From assembly GCF_002835935.1 (NCBI RefSeq), contig NZ_PJCF01000015.1, positions 1-64,000 of the forward strand: 64,000 nucleotides of DNA, in the 5' to 3' direction. Below are positions 37,870 through 53,660 of the stretch, piece after piece. Under the pieces are notes generated by a model. That model was not told the origin of the DNA. It saw only the letters and a list, made by a program, of their open reading frames with translations, and ran no database searches. The position numbers and the translations under genes are program-made. Source of the stretch: Paraglaciecola sp. MB-3u-78 (GTDB lineage Bacteria > Pseudomonadota > Gammaproteobacteria > Enterobacterales > Alteromonadaceae). Each line of letters begins with the position of its first letter. Position 1 is the stretch's first letter.

Positions 37870-37943
37870 GTAAGCGCTTAATAAACCGACGTACTTTCCA
37901 AGTATAAATATCCTTGTCATAATCTAACAGTTCACAGTAAGCG

Positions 37944-39536
37944 CTATTGAACGTGCGGGGGTAGCCAACTGGGTTTTGAATTTTTGAAATTCCATGGCAG
38001 GAGGTCTTCGATCTTTTCAACCGTGTCAGCATAGGGTAACGCCTTGAACACGGCATTGAGATAAGCGTAAGGTTCAAGCTCATGAATTTTGGCTGACTCA
38101 ATCAGGCTATAATGGATTGCACTGGCATTAGCGCCTGCTGGGGTATCGGCAAATAACCAGGCGCGCCTACCAACAGCAAAGGGACGAATGGCATTTTCAG
38201 CCAGAATATTGCTGAGCCTCAGCCGACCATCCGTACTGTAAACCATTAGCTTTTCCCACTGATTATGTAAATAGGTCATCGCCTTGCCCGTCAATCCTCC
38301 TTTGTCGACTCTGGGGCGATTGAGCTCCAGCCATGTTTTCAGCTCGCTGAGTATGGGCACACTTCTTTGTTGCCTGGCCTGATAAATTTCATCCGCGCTT
38401 AGCAATTTGATTTGACGCTCTACCACGTACAACTTATTGATAAGGCTCAGTGCCATATCCGCTTTGGTTACCTTGCCTTTCATTGCCCTGGGTTGCCCAT
38501 CTTTGGCTTCACGGAATTTTCGTCGTGCATGATCCCAGCAACCCACCGAGATTAACTGATTTTGTCTGCATACCTCGTTATAACTGGCACAGCCATCGGT
38601 TTGCAGGTAGCCATGGGTAAACCCATCAAGCAGGCGCAAGGGTACCTCCCTGCCACGGGAGGGATCGTATTCAAACAAGACACTTCGTTGCTGCGGTAAC
38701 CCGCCCAGGGTTACCCACATCCATTTATGTGAAGTGGGCGAACGATCTGGCTCTTTCAATACTTGAATGCGGGTTTCATCCGCACAAATCAGTGGGCCCG
38801 AATGTTGATGCTCCCTGAGTAGGTTAATTAAAGGTTGGGCTTGTTTCGACAGGGCAATCACCCAGTTGGCCAGTGTGGCCCTTGATATTTCACCGCCATA
38901 ACGTTTGATGATGTTTTCAAGTCGATAAAGCGGCATGCCATCGGCGTATTTTGAAATAATGATATAGGTCATCAGGTTGACGCTCCCCATGGCCTTGGGG
39001 ACAGGATGTTTGATAAGCTGGGCGGCTTTCACCGTGCGGCCATCATCTTGTGTTTTGAAGGTCGCTTTTTCCTGCATGTATTCCAATACACGTACCTGAG
39101 CGGGAATGATATCCAGCTCTTCCCTGACTTTGACAAAGAAGGTGTCAATGGCACCCACTTTTTCTTCATCACTCAAATAAGCGAACACCTGAAGGCGGGG
39201 CAATTTGTCGGACAGTGGCTTGCGACCGGTTTTGGCCTTTGGCTCGTTGCCTGTAGGTAAAGGTGAGTCGACAGGCTCAGGCTCAGCCACCGCTTCTACT
39301 TCATTAAACAGGTGACCTTGCTGTGGTGGTGTTTGCTCAGAGCTGGCGCCAAAACGTTTTGAGTTGGCCAACCGCAAGTACTCTTCAAGCATCGCTATTC
39401 GTTTCTTTTGCTCGGCAATGACATCCGTTTTCTGTTCGATGACATCGTCTTTTTCAGACAGCAATGCGGTCATCTGGCTCATCGCATCCAGATGTAATTT
39501 TGCTTTATTTTCAGTGTCTTGCGGCGCTAATTTCAT
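37944..39536 (-). CDS. tnpC: IS66 transposase TnpC (copy A)
   Basis: 530 aa, DDE transposase of IS66 elements. An N-terminal coiled coil (SEKDDVIEQKTDVIAEQKKRI..) is followed by a region rich in Pro/Glu, a zinc-binding/helix-turn-helix part, and the catalytic core with CADETRIQVL, QTDGCASYNEV and ENAIRPFAVGRRAWLF (D, D, E). The translation is identical to copy B at 47210-48802. Complete. Confidence 0.93.
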   Translation of the reverse strand: MKLAPQDTENKAKLHLDAMSQMTALLSEKDDVIEQKTDVIAEQKKRIAMLEEYLRLANSKRFGASSEQTPPQQGHLFNEVEAVAEPEPVDSPLPTGNEPKAKTGRKPLSDKLPRLQVFAYLSDEEKVGAIDTFFVKVREELDIIPAQVRVLEYMQEKATFKTQDDGRTVKAAQLIKHPVPKAMGSVNLMTYIIISKYADGMPLYRLENIIKRYGGEISRATLANWVIALSKQAQPLINLLREHQHSGPLICADETRIQVLKEPDRSPTSHKWMWVTLGGLPQQRSVLFEYDPSRGREVPLRLLDGFTHGYLQTDGCASYNEVCRQNQLISVGCWDHARRKFREAKDGQPRAMKGKVTKADMALSLINKLYVVERQIKLLSADEIYQARQQRSVPILSELKTWLELNRPRVDKGGLTGKAMTYLHNQWEKLMVYSTDGRLRLSNILAENAIRPFAVGRRAWLFADTPAGANASAIHYSLIESAKIHELEPYAYLNAVFKALPYADTVEKIEDLLPWNFKNSKPSWLPPHVQ

Positions 39537-39571
39537 GCCGTAAAGTATACCAAATTAGCGCATTGATTACC

Positions 39572-39937
39572 TTAAAAAACGGCCTCATAATGCAACTTTT
39601 TATGACCTTTCATGGCACTGATATCATAGCCATCAAGCAGCCAATTAATTTGCTGCCCGGTCAGTGTTATCACCTTATCATCACGCTTTGGCCACTTGAA
39701 CTTTTCCTCTGACAGGCTTTTGTAATACAACACAAAACCATTATCTTCCCAGAACAGACACTTGATTTTATTACGCCGTTTATTGGTGAATGCATAAAGG
39801 TGACCGGCAAAGGGGTCGTGCCCCAACTCACATTCAATGATGGCAGATAATCCCAAGTGTGCCTTGCGAAAATCAATCGGCTGTTGGTAAAGAAAAACCT
39901 GAGTGAGCTCCACACCTGGACGCATCACTTTGCTCAC
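39572..39937 (-). CDS. tnpB: IS66 accessory protein TnpB (copy A)
   Basis: 121 aa. Typical IS66 Orf2 blocks: VFLYQQPIDFRKAHLGLSAI, LYAFTNKRRNKIKCLFWEDNGFVLYYK and LTGQQINWLLDG. Required with TnpA and TnpC for IS66 transposition. Starts at a GTG overlapping the tnpA stop by 4 bp, so translation is coupled. Identical to the copy at 46809-47174. Confidence 0.93.
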   Translation of the reverse strand: MSKVMRPGVELTQVFLYQQPIDFRKAHLGLSAIIECELGHDPFAGHLYAFTNKRRNKIKCLFWEDNGFVLYYKSLSEEKFKWPKRDDKVITLTGQQINWLLDGYDISAMKGHKKLHYEAVF

Positions 39938-40257
39938 GACAACAACTCGGCTAATTGTTTAACCACTGACACGTTACTTGCCGTGATACCTATCAGACGA
40001 ACACCATTGGTAAAGTGCAATGAGAGTGGATCATGATGTTGCGGCTCAGGTAATCGCTGCACACTGACAAAACCGGAGGGTTTGTGGTTAATGGGTACCA
40101 GTGCGGTTGAGTATTTGCGTTTGTGGTAGCTGAAGTTGTGTGGACACAGGTCGTGATCTCGACAATAGGCAGCTTGGGTTAAACCTGAGTCACGCCACTG
40201 AGTCACATGCTCACGCCACAGCGGAGCTTCCTGCTTTAAATTTGATGTTGCGGTCAC
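39934..40257 (-). CDS. tnpA: IS66 accessory protein TnpA (copy A)
   Basis: 107 aa, helix-turn-helix type Orf1 of IS66 (WREHVTQWRDSGLTQAAYCRDHDL). GTG start preceded by GAGG. First gene of the three-gene IS operon; identical to the copy at 46489-46812. Confidence 0.9.
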   Translation of the reverse strand: MTATSNLKQEAPLWREHVTQWRDSGLTQAAYCRDHDLCPHNFSYHKRKYSTALVPINHKPSGFVSVQRLPEPQHHDPLSLHFTNGVRLIGITASNVSVVKQLAELLS

Positions 40258-40342
40258 TTTGTTTTCCTCATACGTTTGTAATGAGGAAATTATGCAGCAG
40301 ATTGCCCGTCGGAATAAGGACGTAGGTTTATTAAGCGCTTAC

Positions 40343-41609: not shown

Positions 41610-42104
41610 CTAAATTGCAGATTGCCTTTTAAAGAGCCAACTTGTTACTTTAAGCATAATCAAAGAAAGTAAAGAAATGCCTAAACAGAGAACTGCAAAA
41701 AAGAAATAAACTGCCCCTGTATTTTTTTTCTTGTCTATGAATTTATCATAAGTCCCAAATTGATATTCTTTTAACTTTAGAAAAACCGTTTCGATTGGCT
41801 CGCCACAAACTTGATCAACAAACATGATTTCTGCATCTATTGACTTTGTAAATTTTAGAGCTTCTTCAGTTTGAATGAAATCCTCTATATCAACTTCATA
41901 TTCAAATTGACAATTTGAATCTCTAGAACTAAAAATCAACTTACTATCCAAAAGTTTTAATCCATGAATAGCCTCTTGCTTCTTATTAAAATTCAATAAA
42001 TCACTTGCATAAAAGTTTTTTCCAGCCCAAAAAAGGCTGACTGTACCAAGGATCAATGTAAGTAAAATTAAAACTCTCCAAAACCATAGATATTCTTTAT
42101 ACAC
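41610..42104 (-). CDS. Two-TM protein coupled to the RHS gene (candidate immunity or partner)
   Basis: 164 aa. Hydrophobic segments at residues about 8-27 (FWRVLILLTLILGTVSLFWA) and 133-155 (VYFFFAVLCLGISLLSLIML) enclose an approximately 105-residue soluble domain with two Cys (SNCQF, VCGEP). It starts with a GTG whose G is shared with the TAG stop of the RHS gene, a one-base overlap that implies translational coupling. The position directly after the RHS C-terminal tip is where immunity genes of polymorphic toxins are found, but no known immunity family is recognised. Confidence 0.6.
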   Translation of the reverse strand: MYKEYLWFWRVLILLTLILGTVSLFWAGKNFYASDLLNFNKKQEAIHGLKLLDSKLIFSSRDSNCQFEYEVDIEDFIQTEEALKFTKSIDAEIMFVDQVCGEPIETVFLKLKEYQFGTYDKFIDKKKNTGAVYFFFAVLCLGISLLSLIMLKVTSWLFKRQSAI

Positions 42105-45100
42105 TATAATTTATCCTCCAATTCTTTTTTAGCCCCAACTACACTAACTCCAAAGGCATCAGCCACTAATTTTTTAGCAGGCGAAAGTGTTAATATAGAA
42201 CCTGGACTCGCAGCCAGAAAACCATCAACAGCTCCTGCACCTGTTTTTAATGCTACTTTATTCATATCAATATCTACTTTTTCTCCCTTACTTACATCGG
42301 TTAAGGAATCTCCTATTGCTTGACCAGAACCTGACGAAATGGCCCCTGTCACAGTACCAGCAGCTAACTTACCAGCAGTAGCCAATGAACTACTTACGGT
42401 TGTTTTTACTACTGTGAGTGCTAATGCTTTAGTTGCAAGTGCGGTAGTACCGCCTGTAAATAACCCAGTCAAAGCTCCCCCAAGCCCAGCCACTATCTGT
42501 GTGTTACCAGAAGCGCCCATGTCACCAGCCGCTTGATATGCTGTATATCCCCCTGATAAAAAACCAATTAATGGTAAAAGAAATAAGAATTCACCATTAG
42601 GGTCTGTATATTTATACGGATTGTTATTCACATACAAATAACGGTTAAACGACATTACAGGATTTTTAGCAGTGTACCCAACAGGATCATTCGAATAAAA
42701 CCGCCCAATCACTGGATCATAGTATCGTGCCTGCATATAGGTCAGACCAATATCATTATCGTGTTTATGGCCGGTATAACCAATCTCATTGTCACCACTT
42801 TCAGCATTGGTCTTGCCCCATTCCAAACCAAAAGGAGCATAGCGTAGGCGTTTCGTAACTGCTCCACTGCTGTTTGATTTAGCGGCTGTAGTCCCCATTA
42901 AGTCAGGGTGAATAAAGGTTTGGGGGCCTGCGCCTTGATGTGCCACTAACTGGCTACCCATGTAATAGTTTGCGCGGTTTGCCCCATTGATCCTTTCATA
43001 CACTAACTTACCTGCCAAGCTGTACATAGAGTAACGGGTTCCTGCACCGTCAACAGTTTTTACTCGTTTGTTGCGACCATCATATAAATACGAGTTGTCA
43101 TCGGCCTCTTCCATTTGGTTAGCGAGATTATAACTAAACGTATGATAACCACTATCAGTGACATTACCACGGCCGTCATAGCTAAAATCATAACTGCGCA
43201 TACCGCTGGTTGATTGTAAACGCTTAGCAGGATCATAGTCATAGTGGATGGTACCGACTATGGAATCAAACTTTGTGATATTGCCCATGGTGTCATAATT
43301 CATATCACCAATCAGTGTTTGGTTGGCTTTACGGACATTATCTATTCTATCAAGACCGTCATAGGTAAAACGTAAATCATAGGTATTTGATTGTTTATCA
43401 TCCCAAAACTTGACATTGCCGTTGGCATCAAAGGTGTATTGGTTGTATACAGCATTGGCACTGCCACACACACTGCGCTGGGTATCAGGTAATCCTGATG
43501 TGCGCAGACTCATGGTGTTAACACAGCCATTTCGCTGCTGATAAGAATTGTATTGACCGTTGGGATGAAAACTTATGTTACTGGCAAATACCCCTATATG
43601 TTTGGGCTGGCCGAATGCATTAGGTATGTACGATAAATTTCCGCCAGTGGGATAGATCAAATTTGCCTCATTGCCAAGAGCATCATAAGTATGACTAATC
43701 ATCCAATCTAGGCTATCAACGCGTAAGCGCTCAGTTTCTGGCATATTCAAGTCATTATAGGTGTAATTTTGTGTTACACCGCCAAAGATTAATTGAGTGA
43801 GATTGTTATTTTTATCGTACCCAAACTCCTTACTCGCGGTGCCATCACCAAAGTCAATGCGTTTGAGATTACCTAAATTGTCATAGGCAGAGGTGACTTT
43901 ATCCTGTGCGTCTACGTTAATGTCGCAGGCCGTGTTAGAGGTGCTGACTGAACTACCGGTTGCCTGCCATGATAATTTCCCTAGCGCGTCATACTGGTAA
44001 GCCGTTCTGCCCACATCATTTCTGTTGACTTTACACAATTGCTGATAGCTATCATAAACACGGTATTCGGTCTGACCCCCCTGGCTTACCGATGTGAGAT
44101 TGCCATAAATATTATACGCTAAGGTGCTGGTGACGTTTTGTGGTGAGGCAACTGTTGTAGCCATGTTTTGCTCAGGGGTGCCATAAGCAAGAAAAGTAGT
44201 GGTGGTAACCTGGCCTCTATTATTATTAACCTGCACTCGGTTGTTAGCTAAGTAGCTATAACTGATATTACCAGAAGTAGTGTTGTCGTCTACAACCTTT
44301 GGTCTACCTAAGCCATCATAAGTGATTGTATTGCCATAAGGGGTATTGTTTAAACTATGGGGTTTACTTTGATAAACAGGCCGATTAAACGCATCAAACT
44401 TCATTCTGGTATAACGCTTGGTGGTACCTTCATTGGCCGTATCCCATTCTTTAGTCATGCGAGCTCTAAGCAAGCTATCATGGTAAGTAACCTTACGATA
44501 ATTGCCTTTACTGATGGTCTGTTTGAGCATTCCTGCTTCAACGTAGGTGTACCCTTCAGCTCCAGAGGTTGTCGTATAACTAACATTCGTATTGTGCCAA
44601 TAAGGATCGCATGGATCAATCAATGTCATACGACCTAATTCATCATAATCATAGTTAATACAATTACCCATAAAATCAGTCTGCTTGGTCACCCTGCCAT
44701 TATTGTCGACCACTTTATAGGCATATTGACTGTTTACGCTCAGACTCTTAGGCGTTCGAATAGTCTGGGCGATACCGCGTTTATAATTTGAATATTCTGC
44801 CCAGCGGCTTGTGCCGTTATAACGAATAATCCTTGGCAAACCTGCACTGGCACCACTTGTGTGATAATACTGAAAATATTTAAACCACCGCCCAAAGGTG
44901 TATTGATATTTTGGTAACGATTTATAACTGCCCGTGGCACTGTAGTAGCTTGTTCTGCTCGTTTCAGTATACGCACTCCCGTTACTTGATACTTGCCTAT
45001 AACTGGGCTGACCAATTAACCAATTAGTCGTATCGTTATAGTAATACTGTTTGGTGTAACGTTTTTTATTCGAAAAATTGTTAGTTTCTACTGTAATTTG

Positions 45101-46395
45101 CGGGAATCCGTATGAATCATAGTTACAGTTAACATCACAGGTTGAAGTGAAATAATTTATTGTATAAACATCACTTTTTCTGGCGTCTTTTTTTGATTTT
45201 AAAAACATCCTATATTCTGTTTGATTACTATTGATAGGATCATCATTGGGATATTCATGATGACGTGTTCTACTCCAATCATTGCCCACGTAATCACCTT
45301 TTTGATATTCAAACTCTTTTCTGTCTAACAACTCAGTCGGGGCCTGCCCAATGATATCTTGTACTAACACGACACCTTGGTTGTGTGAACCAAATTTTCG
45401 ATATGTATAAAAAATGGATTTTTTTGTCCCATCATCTATCGTTGTAGTTCGAAAATCTTTTGGACTTGTTGCAACAATGGATGGAAATCCAGTCGATGGT
45501 TGTGACGGTGCATTTTCTGTTGGGTAACGAGTTTGGAGAAGGTGGCCATTAAAAAAACCACCTATATTTTGTGAGTATGCATACGTGTATGCTCTATCCT
45601 CAATGCCAGGTCCAGCGACACTCTTTTCAACTAAAGCATAAGAAGCTGAACAGGGTACGTTTCCTACCAAACCATCGTTAGTATTACGGTCACGAAAGGC
45701 ACCAGGCTTGACCTGACTATCATAAAAATAAGTTTTTCTAGCCTTATATGCTACGGCTATGTCTGTTGGGGCGGTAACATTGTATGTTAAGTCAGCGCTA
45801 TTAGCATTGAAAGAACATCCAGGTTTACTAAATGTTGGTATTTGTGTATTAGGATCTATTTTTTCGTAGAAAAAATGATAACCAAAATTTTGCGCTTGGC
45901 TGTCAGGGTTGAATTTCATCCAATTAAAACCTGAATAAGTCCATTTTTTGCCTTCTGGTAAATCAACTTCTGACAAACTATTACTATTGTAGTAATAGTG
46001 CCATTCTCGATTGTTTGCCGTTACTTTAGAAACTCTATATTTGGTACCTGAAGAGCTACTATAAGTAATATTGATTGTTCTACCGTCGCTGGAAACAATG
46101 CTTTTAAGACCTTTTGAGTCGTAATTATAGACAACATTGTTTCCAAATCGATCGTGAATTTTCGTGACATATATAAGTTTAGTTTTTGCCTCTAAAGTAC
46201 TGCCGGGTATAATTTTTCCATTACTATACGACTTAACATAGTTAAACTCATAGGTTAAGCCATCAGGACCAGCCACTTTGAACCCTTCTTCACCATTAGG
46301 GTTGGTAATACATTGAGTAACTTTGTAGTTACTTTTAGTGATTTGGTTAGCGCCATTAGTCAAAAACCTTTCATGTGTTTTACCAGGAATGTGCA
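42104..46395 (-). pseudogene. RHS/YD-repeat protein, 3' part (gene split by IS66 copy B)
   Basis: From an internal ATG at 46363 the open part encodes 1,419 aa. Many YD-type repeats are seen (RHDRF-like IHDRFGNNVVYNYDSKGLKSI, YTYNDLNMPETERL, FTYDGLDRIDNVRK, YDYDPAKRLQSTSG), then the RHS core end QARYYDPVIGRFYSNDPVGY..LYVNNNPYKYTDPNGE at about 1,220-1,255, and a hydrophobic Gly/Ala-rich tip of about 165 residues ending KELEDKL. Removing IS66 and one 8-bp duplicate joins this in frame to 48877-49510 (LVYSSTYWTGKL + LHIPGKTHERFL), giving a 1,641-codon gene. The insertion should silence it or leave an N-terminally truncated product. Confidence 0.9.
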
Positions 46396-46403
46396 GTAAT
46401 TTT
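46396..46403. repeat. 8-bp target duplication of IS66 copy B (GTAATTTT), left
   Basis: GTAATTTT before the left end of IS66 copy B; repeated exactly at 48877-48884. Confidence 0.9.
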
Positions 46404-46488
46404 GTAAGCGCTTAATAAACCTACGTCCTTATTCCGACGGGCAATCTGCTGCATAATTTCCTCATTACAAACGTATGAGGAAAACAAA

Positions 46489-46812
46489 GTGACCGCAACA
46501 TCAAATTTAAAGCAGGAAGCTCCGCTGTGGCGTGAGCATGTGACTCAGTGGCGTGACTCAGGTTTAACCCAAGCTGCCTATTGTCGAGATCACGACCTGT
46601 GTCCACACAACTTCAGCTACCACAAACGCAAATACTCAACCGCACTGGTACCCATTAACCACAAACCCTCCGGTTTTGTCAGTGTGCAGCGATTACCTGA
46701 GCCGCAACATCATGATCCACTCTCATTGCACTTTACCAATGGTGTTCGTCTGATAGGTATCACGGCAAGTAACGTGTCAGTGGTTAAACAATTAGCCGAG
46801 TTGTTGTCGTGA
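46489..46812 (+). CDS. tnpA: IS66 accessory protein TnpA (copy B)
   Basis: 107 aa; translation identical to 39934-40257 (helix-turn-helix Orf1, WRDSGLTQAAYC). GTG start with GAGG upstream; overlaps tnpB by 4 bp. Confidence 0.9.
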   Translation: MTATSNLKQEAPLWREHVTQWRDSGLTQAAYCRDHDLCPHNFSYHKRKYSTALVPINHKPSGFVSVQRLPEPQHHDPLSLHFTNGVRLIGITASNVSVVKQLAELLS

Positions 46813-47174
46813 GCAAAGTGATGCGTCCAGGTGTGGAGCTCACTCAGGTTTTTCTTTACCAACAGCCGATTGATTTTCGCAAGGCACACTTGGGATTATC
46901 TGCCATCATTGAATGTGAGTTGGGGCACGACCCCTTTGCCGGTCACCTTTATGCATTCACCAATAAACGGCGTAATAAAATCAAGTGTCTGTTCTGGGAA
47001 GATAATGGTTTTGTGTTGTATTACAAAAGCCTGTCAGAGGAAAAGTTCAAGTGGCCAAAGCGTGATGATAAGGTGATAACACTGACCGGGCAGCAAATTA
47101 ATTGGCTGCTTGATGGCTATGATATCAGTGCCATGAAAGGTCATAAAAAGTTGCATTATGAGGCCGTTTTTTAA
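46809..47174 (+). CDS. tnpB: IS66 accessory protein TnpB (copy B)
   Basis: 121 aa; translation identical to 39572-39937, with the QPIDFRKAHLGLSA and KIKCLFWEDNGFVLYYK blocks of IS66 Orf2. Confidence 0.93.
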   Translation: MSKVMRPGVELTQVFLYQQPIDFRKAHLGLSAIIECELGHDPFAGHLYAFTNKRRNKIKCLFWEDNGFVLYYKSLSEEKFKWPKRDDKVITLTGQQINWLLDGYDISAMKGHKKLHYEAVF

Positions 47175-47209
47175 GGTAATCAATGCGCTAATTTGGTATA
47201 CTTTACGGC

Positions 47210-48802
47210 ATGAAATTAGCGCCGCAAGACACTGAAAATAAAGCAAAATTACATCTGGATGCGATGAGCCAGATGACCGCATTGCTGTCTGAAAAAGACG
47301 ATGTCATCGAACAGAAAACGGATGTCATTGCCGAGCAAAAGAAACGAATAGCGATGCTTGAAGAGTACTTGCGGTTGGCCAACTCAAAACGTTTTGGCGC
47401 CAGCTCTGAGCAAACACCACCACAGCAAGGTCACCTGTTTAATGAAGTAGAAGCGGTGGCTGAGCCTGAGCCTGTCGACTCACCTTTACCTACAGGCAAC
47501 GAGCCAAAGGCCAAAACCGGTCGCAAGCCACTGTCCGACAAATTGCCCCGCCTTCAGGTGTTCGCTTATTTGAGTGATGAAGAAAAAGTGGGTGCCATTG
47601 ACACCTTCTTTGTCAAAGTCAGGGAAGAGCTGGATATCATTCCCGCTCAGGTACGTGTATTGGAATACATGCAGGAAAAAGCGACCTTCAAAACACAAGA
47701 TGATGGCCGCACGGTGAAAGCCGCCCAGCTTATCAAACATCCTGTCCCCAAGGCCATGGGGAGCGTCAACCTGATGACCTATATCATTATTTCAAAATAC
47801 GCCGATGGCATGCCGCTTTATCGACTTGAAAACATCATCAAACGTTATGGCGGTGAAATATCAAGGGCCACACTGGCCAACTGGGTGATTGCCCTGTCGA
47901 AACAAGCCCAACCTTTAATTAACCTACTCAGGGAGCATCAACATTCGGGCCCACTGATTTGTGCGGATGAAACCCGCATTCAAGTATTGAAAGAGCCAGA
48001 TCGTTCGCCCACTTCACATAAATGGATGTGGGTAACCCTGGGCGGGTTACCGCAGCAACGAAGTGTCTTGTTTGAATACGATCCCTCCCGTGGCAGGGAG
48101 GTACCCTTGCGCCTGCTTGATGGGTTTACCCATGGCTACCTGCAAACCGATGGCTGTGCCAGTTATAACGAGGTATGCAGACAAAATCAGTTAATCTCGG
48201 TGGGTTGCTGGGATCATGCACGACGAAAATTCCGTGAAGCCAAAGATGGGCAACCCAGGGCAATGAAAGGCAAGGTAACCAAAGCGGATATGGCACTGAG
48301 CCTTATCAATAAGTTGTACGTGGTAGAGCGTCAAATCAAATTGCTAAGCGCGGATGAAATTTATCAGGCCAGGCAACAAAGAAGTGTGCCCATACTCAGC
48401 GAGCTGAAAACATGGCTGGAGCTCAATCGCCCCAGAGTCGACAAAGGAGGATTGACGGGCAAGGCGATGACCTATTTACATAATCAGTGGGAAAAGCTAA
48501 TGGTTTACAGTACGGATGGTCGGCTGAGGCTCAGCAATATTCTGGCTGAAAATGCCATTCGTCCCTTTGCTGTTGGTAGGCGCGCCTGGTTATTTGCCGA
48601 TACCCCAGCAGGCGCTAATGCCAGTGCAATCCATTATAGCCTGATTGAGTCAGCCAAAATTCATGAGCTTGAACCTTACGCTTATCTCAATGCCGTGTTC
48701 AAGGCGTTACCCTATGCTGACACGGTTGAAAAGATCGAAGACCTCCTGCCATGGAATTTCAAAAATTCAAAACCCAGTTGGCTACCCCCGCACGTTCAAT
48801 AG
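47210..48802 (+). CDS. tnpC: IS66 transposase TnpC (copy B)
   Basis: 530 aa; translation identical to 37944-39536. DDE residues in CADETRIQ, QTDGCASY and ENAIRPFAVGRRAW. Complete and probably active, given the perfect ends. Confidence 0.93.
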   Translation: MKLAPQDTENKAKLHLDAMSQMTALLSEKDDVIEQKTDVIAEQKKRIAMLEEYLRLANSKRFGASSEQTPPQQGHLFNEVEAVAEPEPVDSPLPTGNEPKAKTGRKPLSDKLPRLQVFAYLSDEEKVGAIDTFFVKVREELDIIPAQVRVLEYMQEKATFKTQDDGRTVKAAQLIKHPVPKAMGSVNLMTYIIISKYADGMPLYRLENIIKRYGGEISRATLANWVIALSKQAQPLINLLREHQHSGPLICADETRIQVLKEPDRSPTSHKWMWVTLGGLPQQRSVLFEYDPSRGREVPLRLLDGFTHGYLQTDGCASYNEVCRQNQLISVGCWDHARRKFREAKDGQPRAMKGKVTKADMALSLINKLYVVERQIKLLSADEIYQARQQRSVPILSELKTWLELNRPRVDKGGLTGKAMTYLHNQWEKLMVYSTDGRLRLSNILAENAIRPFAVGRRAWLFADTPAGANASAIHYSLIESAKIHELEPYAYLNAVFKALPYADTVEKIEDLLPWNFKNSKPSWLPPHVQ

Positions 48803-48876
48803 CGCTTACTGTGAACTGTTAGATTATGACAAGGATATTTATACTTGGAAAGTACGTCGGTTTATTAAGCGCTTAC

Positions 48877-48884
48877 GTAATTTT
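48877..48884. repeat. 8-bp target duplication of IS66 copy B (GTAATTTT), right
   Basis: Exact repeat of 46396-46403. Confidence 0.9.
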
Positions 48885-49433
48885 CCAGTCCAATAGGTAC
48901 TTGAATAAACGAGGTCTTCTCTGTCATCAACTACCGTCTCTGCGCTGCCTGAACAATTGAAGCCACCATGCCAATCATGAATACCCCATTGTATTTTCGG
49001 TGATTCAGAAATACTGCCTCTAACAGACATAAACTTACCTTGGATGAAAGGAATATTTATATCCCAATCACCTAGTGCTTGGGCATGATAATCACCGTCT
49101 GGTACCCATCGTGAGAATTGGACAGGTATATTAAAGTTGCCAGGGATACTTACATCGGTATTATTTAAACTGATTTGGCCTGTACTAGGCACATATCTAT
49201 CACCTTCAGGTGAACTAATATCTAAAACAGCATTCGCATAACTTGACTGAGCAGAAATCAATTCGGAATCCAAGGTTAAATAACTACTAGGATTATTAGG
49301 ATCATCATCCATGTAGACTGAGTGAGAATATTGAATACAAGACATACAAGTCAACAAAATCAGTATAATGTTCTTGTAAATTCGACGAATATTATTCAAA
49401 TATGTGTTTTTTAAAAGTTGAACGCTAAGAAAG

Positions 49434-49489
49434 ATGAAAGATGAAAGATGAAAGATGAAAGATGAAAGATGAAAGATGAAAGATGAAAG
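49434..49489. repeat. Heptanucleotide microsatellite (ATGAAAG)8
   Basis: Eight perfect, uninterrupted 7-bp units (56 bp) at the 5' end of the RHS gene (CTTTCAT on the coding strand). Because 7 is not a multiple of three, gain or loss of a unit would shift any frame that starts upstream, or change promoter/leader spacing if translation begins at the downstream TTG. This is the usual form of slipped-strand phase variation. Confidence 0.9.
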
Positions 49490-49510
49490 GGATTTAGGTT
49501 GAAAGGACAT

Positions 49511-49651
49511 GTTAATTCCATTTTATTTGGGTGAATCCTATCCGCACGACTGTACTTATACTTTGCGGAAACATCAAATTTATTTTATCGAAACGTTTTA
49601 AGCGTTGATTTTATTTGATGTGCCGGGTGACTAAAATAGTTCGATGCAATC
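49511..49651. promoter_or_regulatory. Upstream region of the RHS gene
   Basis: About 140 bp of AT-rich DNA between the RHS start and the IS110 end. It contains an imperfect inverted repeat (ACATCAAATTTATTTTATCG..TTTTATTTGATGT, about 49571-49621), which may be a regulatory or terminator structure. No promoter can be fixed by eye. Confidence 0.3.
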
Positions 49652-50762
49652 CAAGATACTGTCTTGAGGATCAAGCCCAAATCTGATTAATGTTGATAAT
49701 TTACATCAAACGGCTTTCCTGATTTCAATACGCCGAAAGCCAGTACCAGTAATTTTCGCATCACCGCGATTAAAGCTACTTTTTTAGGCTTACCTTTGGT
49801 TAAAAGTTTATTATAAAAAGCGAGCATTAATGGGTTATATCTGACGGCAACCATGGCTGGCATATACAATGATTTTCGTAATCTAGTACTGCCCGTCTTT
49901 GACAAGCTGGAACGGTTAAGACTGGTCCCAGATTGATCAATGCTTGGGTTGAGCCCGGCATAACTACTTATCTGTTTTGAGTTTTCAAATAAAGAAATAT
50001 CACCTATGTACGCTAGCAATGCCCACGCTGTTTTGTCCCCAATACCATTAATACTAACGAGTAACTTAAGCTGAACTGTTAGCTGCTCATCCTGCTTAAT
50101 AATCATGGTTATTTCTTTTTTAATGACTACTATTTGTTTATCAATAAAAGTCAGCATGGACCCAATGGAGCGTGCTGCGGCCTTATCTAAACTGACACCC
50201 GAACGATTGTTCTCCTGGCTTTTCATCTTACTTAACTGATCTAGGCGTGTGACAAGAAACTGTACCCGTTCAAATGCTGCAGACCTTGGTATGAAAAGGC
50301 TCTTGACAATCCCTCCTCTATTAAATAAGTACTGACAATAACGAGCAATGCTCATCGCATCGGCTTTATCTGTCTTATTTCTCGCCATTTCCATCTTAGC
50401 AAACGCATGGGTTTGGAGTGGATTGGCAACGATAACCTTTTGGTTGGTTTGATATAAATGCTTAGCTAATGCCAAACCATAAATCCCCGTTGCTTCTAAA
50501 CAGAAATAGGCGGTTTTTTTAAATGACTTTATCCATTGTGAGAGTTTTAAAAAACCTGACTGCTTGTTCTCAAATTGACGACTCTGGTACTTGCCATCAA
50601 TTAACACGGCCACATCAAAACTTAATTTAGAAATATCAATACCCACAAATATCATGAAGAAGTCCTTACGTTGAGATACACTGATTTCGATTTGATAGTT
50701 AACGTCAACTGCATTCTTGTCGCTATACTTGCTACAGCTTCAGACTGTGCACAAGATACTGT
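49652..50762 (-). mobile_element. IS110-family element, tentative limits
   Basis: The 11-bp direct repeat CAAGATACTGT occurs at 49652-49662 and 50752-50762, bracketing the IS110 transposase. IS110 elements lack terminal inverted repeats and recombine at short core sequences that appear at both ends, so these repeats are plausible limits, but the true limits could lie further out on the right. The noncoding stretch between the transposase start (50655) and the right end is where the bridge RNA of IS110 elements is encoded. Confidence 0.4.
49687..50655 (-). CDS. IS110-family transposase (DEDD recombinase)
   Basis: 322 aa. The N-terminal RuvC-like DEDD domain has FVGIDISKLSFDVAV, CLEATGIYGLALAKHL, and NKTDKADAMSIARYC. 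The C-terminal transposase_20 domain has SINGIGDKTAWALLAYIGDI, YAGLNPSIDQSGTS and KTGSTRLRKSLYMPAMVAVRYNP, with the conserved Ser region near the end of the SGT motif. It catalyses RNA-guided recombination in this family. Intact, with a noncoding leader on the 5' side. Confidence 0.93.
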   Translation of the reverse strand: MIFVGIDISKLSFDVAVLIDGKYQSRQFENKQSGFLKLSQWIKSFKKTAYFCLEATGIYGLALAKHLYQTNQKVIVANPLQTHAFAKMEMARNKTDKADAMSIARYCQYLFNRGGIVKSLFIPRSAAFERVQFLVTRLDQLSKMKSQENNRSGVSLDKAAARSIGSMLTFIDKQIVVIKKEITMIIKQDEQLTVQLKLLVSINGIGDKTAWALLAYIGDISLFENSKQISSYAGLNPSIDQSGTSLNRSSLSKTGSTRLRKSLYMPAMVAVRYNPLMLAFYNKLLTKGKPKKVALIAVMRKLLVLAFGVLKSGKPFDVNYQH

Positions 50763-50853: not shown

Positions 50854-50980
50854 CTATCCAATCACCTTGGATAGTGTAAAACATAGCTTATGTTTTGCAC
50901 GGGTTTAAGATACAAGGTCTTGTATTTTGCATATGTGACGTGGTCAACCTAATACGACGTGGTCTAATATATACGACCAC
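50854..50980. repeat. Cluster of four closely spaced hairpins
   Basis: Consecutive perfect or near-perfect stems: CTATCCAA/TTGGATAG (50854-50874, 5-nt loop); GTGTAAAACATA/TATGTTTTGCAC (50874-50900, 3-nt loop, one G-T pair); ATACAAG/CTTGTAT (50910-50925); GTGGTC/GACCAC (50959-50980). A second GTGGTC lies at 50940-50945. Just upstream, GAGGGGTAG (about 50788-50796) pairs with CTACCCCTC (50846-50854). No protein is encoded. It may be a structured RNA, an attachment region or degenerate palindromic repeats. Confidence 0.6.
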
Positions 50981-51001
50981 CCTAGTTAAGACATAATAGC
51001 T

Positions 51002-51157
51002 TTAACTGGAGGTAGATAATGTGATGTAGCAAAACTTGATTAGTTTACTTTGAATGAATTGATATCGCTCCTTTTTATCACCTAAAACGGTAAAAACTGC
51101 GGTTTGGTTACCTTGAATAAAACTATCAAGGGCTTCAACTTTTTCAACAGTAAAAGA
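51002..51157 (-). pseudogene. N-terminal remnant of an integrase-type transposase
   Basis: The minus strand reads GYSFTVEKVEALDSFIQGN, then QTAVFTVLGDKKERYQFIQ, then SKLIKFCYITLSTSS and a stop (TAA, 51002-51004). It has no start codon. The GNQxAVFxVLGDKKERYxFI pattern recalls, from memory, the N-terminus of a DDE integrase-core transposase common in marine gammaproteobacteria. The catalytic part is absent. Too short to be functional; the assignment is tentative. Confidence 0.35.
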
Positions 51158-51196
51158 GTAACCAGAAAATGCCGCACGCTACTAAAGTTTTTAACC

Positions 51197-51310
51197 GCAC
51201 AAAAAGGCTTATTTTAGGGTCGCTACAAATGTGTCCATTCAACTTTCGCTCAAATGGCATCCCGCGCGGCGTCCGCTTGCCATTTGCCCCTAAAACAAGC
51301 CTTTTTGTGC
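51197..51310. repeat. Palindromic MITE-like element
   Basis: 114 bp with imperfect terminal inverted repeats (GCACAAAAAGGCTTATTTTA at 51197 against the complement of TAAAACAAGCCTTTTTGTGC ending at 51310) and an inner stem CAAATGGCA (51251-51259)/TGCCATTTG (51278-51286). It ends one base before the target duplication of IS66 copy C. Its GC-rich core (51260-51279) is found inverted at 5447-5466. No coding capacity is recognised. Confidence 0.6.
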
Positions 51311-51311
51311 A

Positions 51312-51319
51312 GAAACATT
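51312..51319. repeat. 8-bp target duplication of IS66 copy C (GAAACATT), left
   Basis: GAAACATT before the left end of IS66 copy C; repeated exactly at 53745-53752. Confidence 0.9.
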
Positions 51320-51343
51320 GTAAGCGGCTAATCAACCCACGTA

Positions 51344-52960
51344 TCAAACAGTCGTAATACTGCGCTTATAGTTCCACGGCAATAACGCTTCAAAATCTTC
51401 CACCGTTTCCGCATAGGGTATCGCTTTGAATATAGTATTGAGATATGCGTATGGCTCAATGCCATGTAACCGAGCGGTTTCAATCAAGCTGTAATGTGCG
51501 GCACTGGCGTTTGCGCCAGCAGGTGTGTCGGCGAATAACCATGCACGCCTCCCAACGGCAAAAGGGCGAATGGCGTTTTCAGCCATAATGTTACTGATGC
51601 GAAGCTGCCCATCTGTGCAATACACAGTGAGTTTATCCCACTGATTATGCAAGTAGGTCATGGCCTTGCCAGTTAAACTGTCGGTGGCCACGCGCGGTTT
51701 GTTTGCCGTGAGCCATGCCTGCAGTGTGTTTAATATCGGCATGCTCTTAGCTTGGCGAACGGCCAGTCTTTTCTCATTGCTAGCATGTTTGATGGTGCGC
51801 TCAATCCCATAGAGCTTGTTAATCAGGCTCAAGGCCATGTCGGCTTTGCTGGCTTTTATTTTTTTCCCTTTAGGTTGTGATTGCTGTGCCTCGATGAATT
51901 TGCGGCGAGCGTGATCCATACAGCCTAATTGAATGAGCTGGTTTTTGCGGCACACTTCGTTGTAACCTGCATAACCGTCGGTTTGCAGGTAGCCATGAGT
52001 AAATCCATGTAGCAAGCGCATAGGCACATGGCGAGCACGCGATGGGTCATAGTCAAACAGCACGCTTTGTTGGTCGGCTTTACCGCCGAGTGTCACCCAC
52101 ATAAATTTATCGCCCGTGGGCGCAAGCCCTGGCTCTTTTAATACCTGAATGCGGGTTTCATCCGCCATAATGAGTGAGCCGGCATGCTGAGTCTCCCTTA
52201 ATAAGTTAATTAAGGGTTGGATTTGTTTGCCTAGCGCAATGACATAGTTGGCGAGTGTTGTTCTTGATATGCTGCCCCCGTATCGTTCGATAATCCCCTC
52301 TAATCGATAAAGCGGCATGCCATCGGCGTATTTAGCAATAATGATGTAGGTCATTAAGTTGATACTGCCCATGGCTTTGGGTACAGGGTGTTTAATGACC
52401 TCAGCCGCTTTCATGGTGGTTGTGCCTTGTTCGTCTTTAAACACCGCCTTTTCCTGCATGTACTCTAGTACCTGTACTTTGGCAGGGATAATATCTAGCT
52501 CTTCTCTGACTTTCACAAAGAAGGTATTGATTGCGCCTTCTTTTTCAGTATCTGACAAATACGCAAACACTTGGGTGCGTGGTAGGTTTTTAGCAAAGGG
52601 TTTGCGACCGGTTTTGGCTTTAGGCTCGCTTGTGGTCGGTAACTCAGGCTCAGTTTGTTCTGGCTCACTGGTCGCTTCGGCTTCGTTGAACAAGTTACCT
52701 TGCTCTGGCGGGGTTTGTTCAGAGCTGCTGCCAAAGCGTTTGCTATTAGATAAGCGTAAATACTCTTCGAGTAACTCAACGCGCTTTTTAAGTGAATCGA
52801 TGACATCAGACTTCTTTTCGATGATGTCACTTTGCTCTGCAATCAGTGTTTCTTTTTCCCCAATCACCCCGTCTTTTTCAGACAGCATAGCTTGCAACCT
52901 TGACATGGTATCGGTGTCGCTAAAAGCCTTGTTTTTATGGGTGTTGGGCGGTAATTTCAT
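51344..52960 (-). CDS. tnpC: IS66 transposase TnpC (copy C)
   Basis: 538 aa, complete. Coiled-coil start (SEKDGVIGEKETLIAEQSDI), then the catalytic blocks MADETRIQVL, QTDGYAGYNEV and ENAIRPFAVGRRAWLFADT. Similar throughout to the copy A/B transposases but with many substitutions and an 8-residue longer N-terminal region. Confidence 0.93.
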   Translation of the reverse strand: MKLPPNTHKNKAFSDTDTMSRLQAMLSEKDGVIGEKETLIAEQSDIIEKKSDVIDSLKKRVELLEEYLRLSNSKRFGSSSEQTPPEQGNLFNEAEATSEPEQTEPELPTTSEPKAKTGRKPFAKNLPRTQVFAYLSDTEKEGAINTFFVKVREELDIIPAKVQVLEYMQEKAVFKDEQGTTTMKAAEVIKHPVPKAMGSINLMTYIIIAKYADGMPLYRLEGIIERYGGSISRTTLANYVIALGKQIQPLINLLRETQHAGSLIMADETRIQVLKEPGLAPTGDKFMWVTLGGKADQQSVLFDYDPSRARHVPMRLLHGFTHGYLQTDGYAGYNEVCRKNQLIQLGCMDHARRKFIEAQQSQPKGKKIKASKADMALSLINKLYGIERTIKHASNEKRLAVRQAKSMPILNTLQAWLTANKPRVATDSLTGKAMTYLHNQWDKLTVYCTDGQLRISNIMAENAIRPFAVGRRAWLFADTPAGANASAAHYSLIETARLHGIEPYAYLNTIFKAIPYAETVEDFEALLPWNYKRSITTV

Positions 52961-52995
52961 GCCCGATATTATACTAAACTTGAGGCTAAAAAGCC

Positions 52996-53361
52996 CTAAA
53001 AAACACTGTCGAAATGCAACTTTTTATGGCCCTTCATGGCACTAATATCAAGACCATCAAGTAGCCAGTTTATTTGCTGGCCGTTGAGTGTTATCACCTC
53101 CTTTTCACACCTCGGCCAAATGAATCTATCTTCCTCTAGGCTTTTGTAATACAGCACGAAACCATTGTTTTCCCAGAACAGACATTTGATTTTAGTGCGC
53201 CGTTTATTGGTGAACACATACAAGTGACCCGAAAAAGGGTTGTGACCCAACTCACATTCGACAATGGCGCTAATGCCTCGAAATGACTTACGGAAGTCAA
53301 TTGCCTGCGGATATAGATAAATATGCGTAAGCGACATGCACGGGCGCATCGCACTTGTCAT
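52996..53361 (-). CDS. tnpB: IS66 accessory protein TnpB (copy C)
   Basis: 121 aa. QAIDFRKSFRGISAIVECELG and KIKCLFWENNGFVLYYKSL are IS66 Orf2 hallmarks. Overlaps the tnpA stop by 4 bp. Confidence 0.92.
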   Translation of the reverse strand: MTSAMRPCMSLTHIYLYPQAIDFRKSFRGISAIVECELGHNPFSGHLYVFTNKRRTKIKCLFWENNGFVLYYKSLEEDRFIWPRCEKEVITLNGQQINWLLDGLDISAMKGHKKLHFDSVF

Positions 53362-53660
53362 GACAATGCCGCCGTTAGCTGTTTCACCACATCGATATTA
53401 TTGGGCGCAATACCCGATAACGACAGGCCATTGGCGAAGTGCAGCGTTAATAATTCTGGCTTGGGTAAATACTCTGGAATAGGCAATGCAATGAAACCCG
53501 TTTTGACCGGTGCTGTTTCTTGCGTTTCTAATCTACGCTTATGGTGACTTAGTCGCTGCGGGTTTAGTTGATGCTTTTTACAATACTGCGTTTGTGTTAA
53601 TGCTGAATCCTTCCATTGGCTTACGTGTTGCTGCCAAAAGATGATGGGTTGTTTTGACAT
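53358..53660 (-). CDS. tnpA: IS66 accessory protein TnpA (copy C)
   Basis: 100 aa helix-turn-helix Orf1 (WQQHVSQWKDSALTQTQYCKKHQLN), first gene of the copy C operon, diverged from the copy A/B protein. Confidence 0.88.
   Translation of the reverse strand: MSKQPIIFWQQHVSQWKDSALTQTQYCKKHQLNPQRLSHHKRRLETQETAPVKTGFIALPIPEYLPKPELLTLHFANGLSLSGIAPNNIDVVKQLTAALS

What the first reader, a model, noticed from the sequence alone, without database searches (positions are those of the whole stretch)
49434..49489. (ATGAAAG)8 heptamer: likely phase-variation switch of the RHS gene
Eight perfect 7-mers at the start of a large surface/toxin-type gene are the signature of slipped-strand phase variation. If translation starts at ATG 49510, each unit gained or lost changes frame. 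If it starts at the TTG near 49400, which gives the better signal peptide, the tract would tune leader spacing. Contingency loci of this type are best known in host-associated bacteria and would be notable in a free-living marine species.
Basis: partly seen in the sequence, partly recalled or inferred. Interest (0 to 1): 0.65.

Follow-up and report, generated by a model that had tools for sequence, protein, structure and literature searches.

The report
Seven-base repeat before broken RHS gene
A perfect run of eight seven-base repeats sits just before the secretion signal of a large RHS-type gene in a gammaproteobacterium; it is the same repeat unit, in the same direction, that tunes adhesin genes in Haemophilus influenzae, but here its variation is unproven and the gene itself is cut in two by a transposon.

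Summary
In detail: 61 bp of perfect period-7 DNA (49429-49489), the longest perfect short-unit repeat in the window and in an 800-kb genome sample, and the genome's only array of this unit (three units or more). The gene is on the minus strand, so its sense strand reads (CTTTCAT)n = (ATCTTTC)n: letter for letter, and in the same orientation, the heptamer in the leader of Haemophilus hmw1A/hmw2A, where more units mean less expression. In 394 genomes of the order three carry four or more units: this one, one with two hmw-like genes (16 and 19 units) and a Vibrio. All four arrays read CTTTCAT upstream of genes for secreted-type proteins.
Relatives' signal peptides favour the TTG start (49399), which puts the tract in the leader (tuning). 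ATG 49510 would give an ON/OFF frame switch, in frame at 8 units; ranked lower. Variation in unit number could not be tested. An IS66 copy with 8-bp duplications splits the gene, so any switch is now idle. Arrays of this unit are common between genes in many phyla, and a reversed-unit control is no rarer in the order (7 against 3 genomes), so a neutral slippage product remains a serious rival.

The parts
49429..49489 (-). heptamer array, sense (CTTTCAT)8 = (ATCTTTC)n, 8.7 perfect units
49397..49399 (-). TTG candidate start of the RHS gene, 34 bp after the eighth unit; no Shine-Dalgarno pairing found (+1.7 kcal/mol)
49319..49399 (-). signal peptide from the TTG start (MNNIRRIYKNIILILLTCMSCIQYSHS); cleavage end is my estimate
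   Evidence: hydrophobic core by hydropathy; cleavage site inferred
49508..49510 (-). alternative ATG start upstream of the array, in frame at 8 units
49519..49521 (-). second upstream ATG in another frame, in frame at 6, 9, 12 units
49511..49653 (-). region between ATG 49510 and the inferred IS110 edge; no promoter stands out above shuffles; no second copy in the genome
48877..49399 (-). RHS gene, 5' half (N-terminal domain with signal peptide)
46404..48876 (+). IS66 insertion, 2473 bp, 8-bp target duplications GTAATTTT at 46396-46403 and 48877-48884; 100% identical copy at 37870-40342
42104..46403 (-). RHS gene, 3' half (RHS repeat, RHS-associated core)
49687..50655 (-). IS110-family transposase gene upstream; element edge near 49654, inferred from one 99% match elsewhere in the genome

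Best explanation
The array is a slippage-prone leader tract of an RHS-type gene with a signal peptide that would work like the heptamer of Haemophilus hmw1A/hmw2A. Translation starts at TTG 49399, the sense strand (CTTTCAT)n lies in the 5' leader, and changes in unit number alter the amount made rather than the protein. A possible extra layer, inferred only: ribosomes that start at ATG 49510 or 49521 either read through into the gene or stop 11 or 25 nt before the TTG, depending on unit number, which could alter re-initiation. Shown: the array, its uniqueness in the genome, the unit and orientation shared with hmw, and the signal-peptide geometry. Inferred: start codon, promoter, slippage and effect. 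At present the product would be truncated, because IS66 splits the gene.
For: Unit and orientation equal (5'-ATCTTTC)n of hmw1A, where more units mean less transcript and protein (passages of PMC8262952; same unit on the other strand in PMC2651432). In the order, 3 of 394 genomes, own included, carry four or more units, and all four arrays read CTTTCAT upstream of genes whose products look secreted: this gene; two hmw-like genes in one genome with 16 and 19 units and identical flanks over 112 bp upstream and 1365 bp downstream (TPS and ESPR domains found on one of the two); a GH18/Ig-like protein in Vibrio. In 38 of 43 measurable RHS relatives the first possible start lies at most 35 residues before the hydrophobic core, median 12; here it is 10-11 from the TTG and 47-48 from the ATG. 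The array is the longest perfect repeat of period 1-12 in 800 kb sampled plus the window. One of 53 relatives' loci (L238) has a perfect 12-bp repeat of 4.4 units 68 bp upstream of its likely start, a unit that cannot shift frame.
Against: No variation in unit number could be observed. The hmw layout of TATAAT directly abutting the first repeat is absent here, and promoter-like sites are no more frequent than in shuffles (3 against 2.8). The TTG has no Shine-Dalgarno pairing (+1.7 kcal/mol), while ATG 49510 has -3.3 and ATG 49521 -4.0; this discriminates poorly, since 28% of 25 unambiguous ATG starts and 34% of 800 random sites score 0 or worse. The unit is widespread as a repeat in unrelated phyla, and over 122 arrays the sense of the unit upstream of genes shows no bias (42 CTTTCAT against 56 ATGAAAG, p 0.19). 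The reversed-unit control occurs in 7 of the same 394 genomes. In 52 of 53 relatives' loci no repeat of period 4 or more passed the thresholds. Signal-peptide cores were called by hydropathy alone and some relatives are near-duplicates.
Confidence: 0.42

Rival explanations
1. Translational ON/OFF switch: translation starts at ATG 49510, the array is coded as a hydrophobic (LSSFIFH)n extension, and unit number sets the frame.
For: At 8 units the ATG frame is open into the gene; at 7, 9 and 10 units it stops before the signal peptide; a second ATG at 49521 would be in frame at 6, 9, 12. Pairing to the anti-SD is -3.3 and -4.0 kcal/mol for the two ATGs, against +1.7 for the TTG.
Against: 22% of 800 random sites reach -3.3. 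The extension would put 47-48 residues before the hydrophobic core, against a median of 12 in 43 relatives, only 1 of which reaches 50 and 5 of which exceed 35. Being in frame has a one-in-three chance anyway.
Confidence: 0.23
2. Neutral slippage product: a heptamer that arose by polymerase slippage and happens to lie before this gene.
For: The same unit, four units or more, was found in at least 119 stretches of many bacteria; 94 of 122 arrays lie outside any open frame of 150 residues or more. The reversed unit is no rarer in the order (7 against 3 of 394). [quoted passage not shown] The gene is broken by IS66.
Against: This genome is poor in such repeats, the array is the only one of its unit, and it sits exactly at the 5' end of a gene with a signal peptide, in the stop-free orientation.
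Confidence: 0.32
3. The array belongs to a mobile element (MITE or an IS end) that landed there.
For: The neighbourhood is full of IS elements and repeats.
Against: 48903-49640 has one match in the own genome (itself) and none in 21 other species of the genus; the array is single; the IS110 match begins only at 49654.
Confidence: 0.03

Closest known systems
Haemophilus influenzae hmw1A/hmw2A 7-bp leader repeats (ATCTTTC)n
   Same: Identical unit, same sense orientation, upstream of a very large surface-type protein with a signal peptide; perfect array.
   Different: There: TATAAT directly abuts the first repeat, and an RBS with ATG lies 115 nt downstream of the array. Here: no such TATAAT; the nearest in-frame start after the array is a TTG 34 nt downstream without SD; 8 units; the gene is RHS-type, not TPS; the gene is interrupted.
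Frame-shifting SSR contingency genes (for example Haemophilus tetranucleotide loci)
   Same: A repeat whose unit is not a multiple of 3 near the start; wrong frames stop at once; two ATGs in different frames upstream.
   Different: Relatives' signal peptides argue that the true start lies after the tract; no variation seen.
Intergenic heptameric SSRs of bacteria (Xanthomonas, Nostoc; PMC4692102, passages)
   Same: Heptamer array; the same unit as here recurs, mostly outside long open frames, in many phyla.
   Different: Several of those genomes carry many arrays; here there is one of this unit, at a gene's 5' end.

Membership tests
hmw-type leader heptamer | unit ATCTTTC on the sense strand of the downstream gene | tested here: met
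hmw-type leader heptamer | -10 box (TATAAT) abutting the first repeat, so that the transcript carries the repeats in its 5' UTR | tested here: not met
   present in L222 and L259; in the window the repeat is preceded by CCTAAATCC; no promoter above shuffles
hmw-type leader heptamer | repeats outside the coding region, start codon with RBS downstream | tested here: inconclusive
   TTG 49399 fits the relatives' signal peptides but lacks an SD; ATG 49510 lies upstream
hmw-type leader heptamer | downstream gene is a two-partner (TPS) adhesin | tested here: not met
   RHS repeat and RHS-associated core instead
SSR contingency (phase-variable) locus | unit number varies between cells or isolates | not testable with these tools
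   no second genome with this DNA among 22 of the genus
SSR contingency (phase-variable) locus | unit number changes expression or frame of the gene | tested here: inconclusive
   frame changes only if translation starts upstream of the tract; expression not testable
RHS-repeat proteins | RHS repeats and RHS-associated core domain | tested here: met
   PF05593 3.6e-13; TIGR03696 3.1e-21
IS66 insertion | IS66 transposase and TnpB proteins, terminal inverted repeats, 8-bp duplication | tested here: met
   PF03050 1.1e-85 and PF05717 2.5e-35 (the first ORF gave no family); ends GTAAGCGCTTAATAAACC, duplications GTAATTTT, identical second copy with its own duplication

The most novel reading that the evidence does not exclude
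(CTTTCAT)n/(ATCTTTC)n is a convergent expression-tuning leader element: a stop-free, unstructured, pyrimidine-rich tract that bacteria as different as Haemophilus, Vibrio and this one have independently placed before genes for secreted proteins, so that a rheostat proven in a human-adapted pathogen also operates on an RHS-type gene elsewhere.
Probability: 0.15. Interest if true: 0.65.

Novelty: new member of a known kind. Interest (0 to 1): 0.4.

Why it matters
If unit number varies and alters output, it would carry a repeat-number rheostat, studied so far in a human-adapted pathogen, over to an RHS-type protein of another bacterium, and it would make a simple question testable: does this exact heptamer act through its sequence or merely its length? 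If not, it is a clean example of how a textbook contingency signature can be a neutral repeat beside a broken gene.

Tried and rejected
Mobile-element origin of the array: rejected, the flanks are single-copy. Many such arrays in the genome: rejected for this unit and, on an 800-kb sample, for perfect repeats of period 1-12 in general. Orthologous tract in relatives: none; among 53 relatives' loci (the ones fetched, not every hit) only L238 has repeats of period 4 or more near the gene, with other units; its 12-bp unit, two copies in a row, is absent from this genome. Orientation preference of the unit over 122 arrays: none upstream of genes (42 against 56); the excess of ATGAAAG sense at gene 3' ends (61 against 34, p 0.007) is probably because that sense contains TGA and so ends frames. 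Gene calls there were simple ORF picks, not annotation. SD strength as arbiter between starts: too weak (41 unambiguous starts in all). Promoter scan: no signal above shuffles. RNA folding: the leader with the tract is unstructured (-2.8 kcal/mol, z +1.1), and the hairpin further upstream is not beyond shuffles (z -1.5). Plasmid match to the IS66 part, 'near' mode: none. Viral contigs with four or more units: none. Papers: searches, whose listings are capped (15 of 28, 25 of 26, 12 of 82, 15 of 886, 12 of 20); the rows listed showed no report of this tract in an RHS gene, which is no proof of absence. I read passages only of PMC8262952, PMC2651432, PMC3309571, PMC2424069, PMC4692102 and PMC11868660; the 1999 hmw paper is not held. 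Host species was not identified.

Full report
What is there. The window holds a perfect period-7 run at 49429-49489, 8.7 units, of which 49434-49489 are eight ATGAAAG units as reported. The gene concerned runs on the minus strand, so the sense strand reads (CTTTCAT)8, a rotation of ATCTTTC. Read in that sense the tract is free of stops in all frames; the other sense contains TGA every 21 nt (from the sequence). It is the only array of three or more units of ATGAAAG in the 6.48-Mb genome (all six three-unit matches lie in it), and none of the 21 other genomes of the genus has four or more units. In 800 kb of the same genome (40 stretches) four perfect repeats of period 1-12 passed the listing thresholds: A15, a CATTCACCG array of 4.9 units, TTCC of 6.5 units and AATTAA of 4. 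So the sample is not repeat-rich.

The gene. The downstream frame gives a signal peptide and a region of about 170 residues without a family in Pfam or NCBIfam, then, beyond an insertion, 1419 residues with an RHS repeat match (PF05593) and the RHS-associated core (TIGR03696). Matches to the N-terminal part occur in 6 of 22 genomes of the genus, 19 of 394 of the order and 61 of 395 of the family, the own genome counted in each; most lie in open frames of about 1300-1900 residues, and the best is 40% identical. The DNA itself has no match in the other 21 genomes of the genus.

The gene is broken. A 2473-bp IS66 element (46404-48876; PF03050 and PF05717) lies between the halves, flanked by GTAATTTT on both sides; a second copy, 100% identical and inverted, lies at 37870-40342 with its own duplication. 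I infer two separate, recent insertions and no inversion between them. The two halves share a frame by coordinates. An IS110-family element lies upstream, its edge near 49654 inferred from one match elsewhere. Whatever the tract does, the present product should be truncated.

Which start? With eight units the ATG at 49510 is in frame; at 7, 9 and 10 units it stops before the signal peptide, and a second ATG (49521) is in frame at 6, 9 and 12 units. The stops fall 11 or 25 nt before TTG 49399 (worked out). Pairing to the anti-SD is -3.3 kcal/mol for ATG 49510, -4.0 for ATG 49521 and +1.7 for the TTG, which taken alone favours the ATGs; but 22% of 800 random sites reach -3.3 and 28% of 25 unambiguous ATG starts score 0 or worse, so this does not decide. 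Relatives do speak: of 53 fetched homologue loci, 44 could be anchored and 43 measured; in 38 the first possible start lies 35 residues or fewer before the hydrophobic core, median 12, and in one it lies 50 or more. In the window the distance is 10-11 from the TTG and 47-48 from the ATG. The cores were picked by hydropathy, and some loci are near-duplicates. I take the TTG as the likelier start and the tract as leader.

The closest precedent. PMC8262952 (passages) gives the hmw1A unit as 5'-ATCTTTC between promoters P2 and P1, with transcripts from P2 carrying it in the 5' UTR and expression falling as units increase. PMC2651432 (passages) gives the unit as TGAAAGA, the other strand, in several strains; PMC3309571 (passage) names both forms; PMC2424069 (passages) reports 9-28 units in four isolates and changes of one unit among colonies and passages. 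The tract here has that unit and that orientation. An order-wide search found four or more units in 3 of 394 genomes: this one; a 1.9-Mb genome with two arrays of 16 and 19 units, each abutted by TATAAT and 115 nt before a like gene, TPS and ESPR domains being found on the one tested; and a Vibrio with six full units 150 nt before a GH18/Ig-like protein with a signal-like N-terminus (the Vibrio name comes from the same sequence). All four arrays have the same sense relative to the gene they precede. The two hmw-like loci share 112 bp upstream and 1365 bp downstream exactly yet differ by three units, so this unit does expand or contract there.

A relative with a repeat. One of 53 relatives' loci, L238, has a perfect 12-bp repeat of 4.4 units 68 bp upstream of its likely start and a six-base repeat of 4.2 units further up. 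A 12-bp unit cannot change frame, so if it matters it would tune. One in 53 is thin.

Cautions. 94 of the 122 lie outside open frames of 150 residues or more. Over these arrays there is no preferred sense upstream of genes (42 against 56). Two Pseudoalteromonas arrays lie between convergent genes. The reversed unit, a composition control, occurs in 7 of the 394 order genomes against 3 for the real one. [quoted passage not shown] So the shared unit may be coincidence, and a neutral origin is not excluded. The hmw promoter layout is not met here.

Verdict. Observation confirmed; interpretation partly supported. Best reading: a slippage-prone leader tract that would work like the hmw heptamer, not a proven member of that kind, on a gene now idle. 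The most useful next fact is whether unit number varies.

Noticed in passing
37870-40342 and 46404-48876: Two 100% identical IS66 elements in inverted orientation, each with its own 8-bp duplication (CTTACTTG and GTAATTTT): recent transposition.
   Followed up: yes
51344-53660: A further, diverged IS66 element (74% identical over 811 bp; PF03050) close by; the region upstream of the RHS gene is crowded with mobile DNA.
   Followed up: partly
50953-51327: Short interspersed repeats with 43 other matches in the genome, in several blocks; MITE-like.
   Followed up: no
41610-42104: Small membrane-type protein gene overlapping the end of the RHS gene; a possible partner or immunity gene by position only; no Pfam or NCBIfam family.
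   Followed up: partly
L238 1983-2035 and 2366-2390: A relative of this RHS gene in the same family has a 12-bp repeat (4.4 units) 68 bp upstream of its likely start and a 6-bp repeat (4.2 units) further up.
   Followed up: partly
L191 16463-16488: TTCC array of 6.5 units beside CACAGAGG/CCTCTGTG-type inverted sequences, elsewhere in this genome.
   Followed up: no
L187 4266-4309: CATTCACCG array of 4.9 units elsewhere in this genome.
   Followed up: no
L068 845-891: The same heptamer upstream of a GH18/Ig-like protein (start 150 nt after the sixth unit) in an uncultured Vibrio, a candidate for the same kind of tuning.
   Followed up: partly
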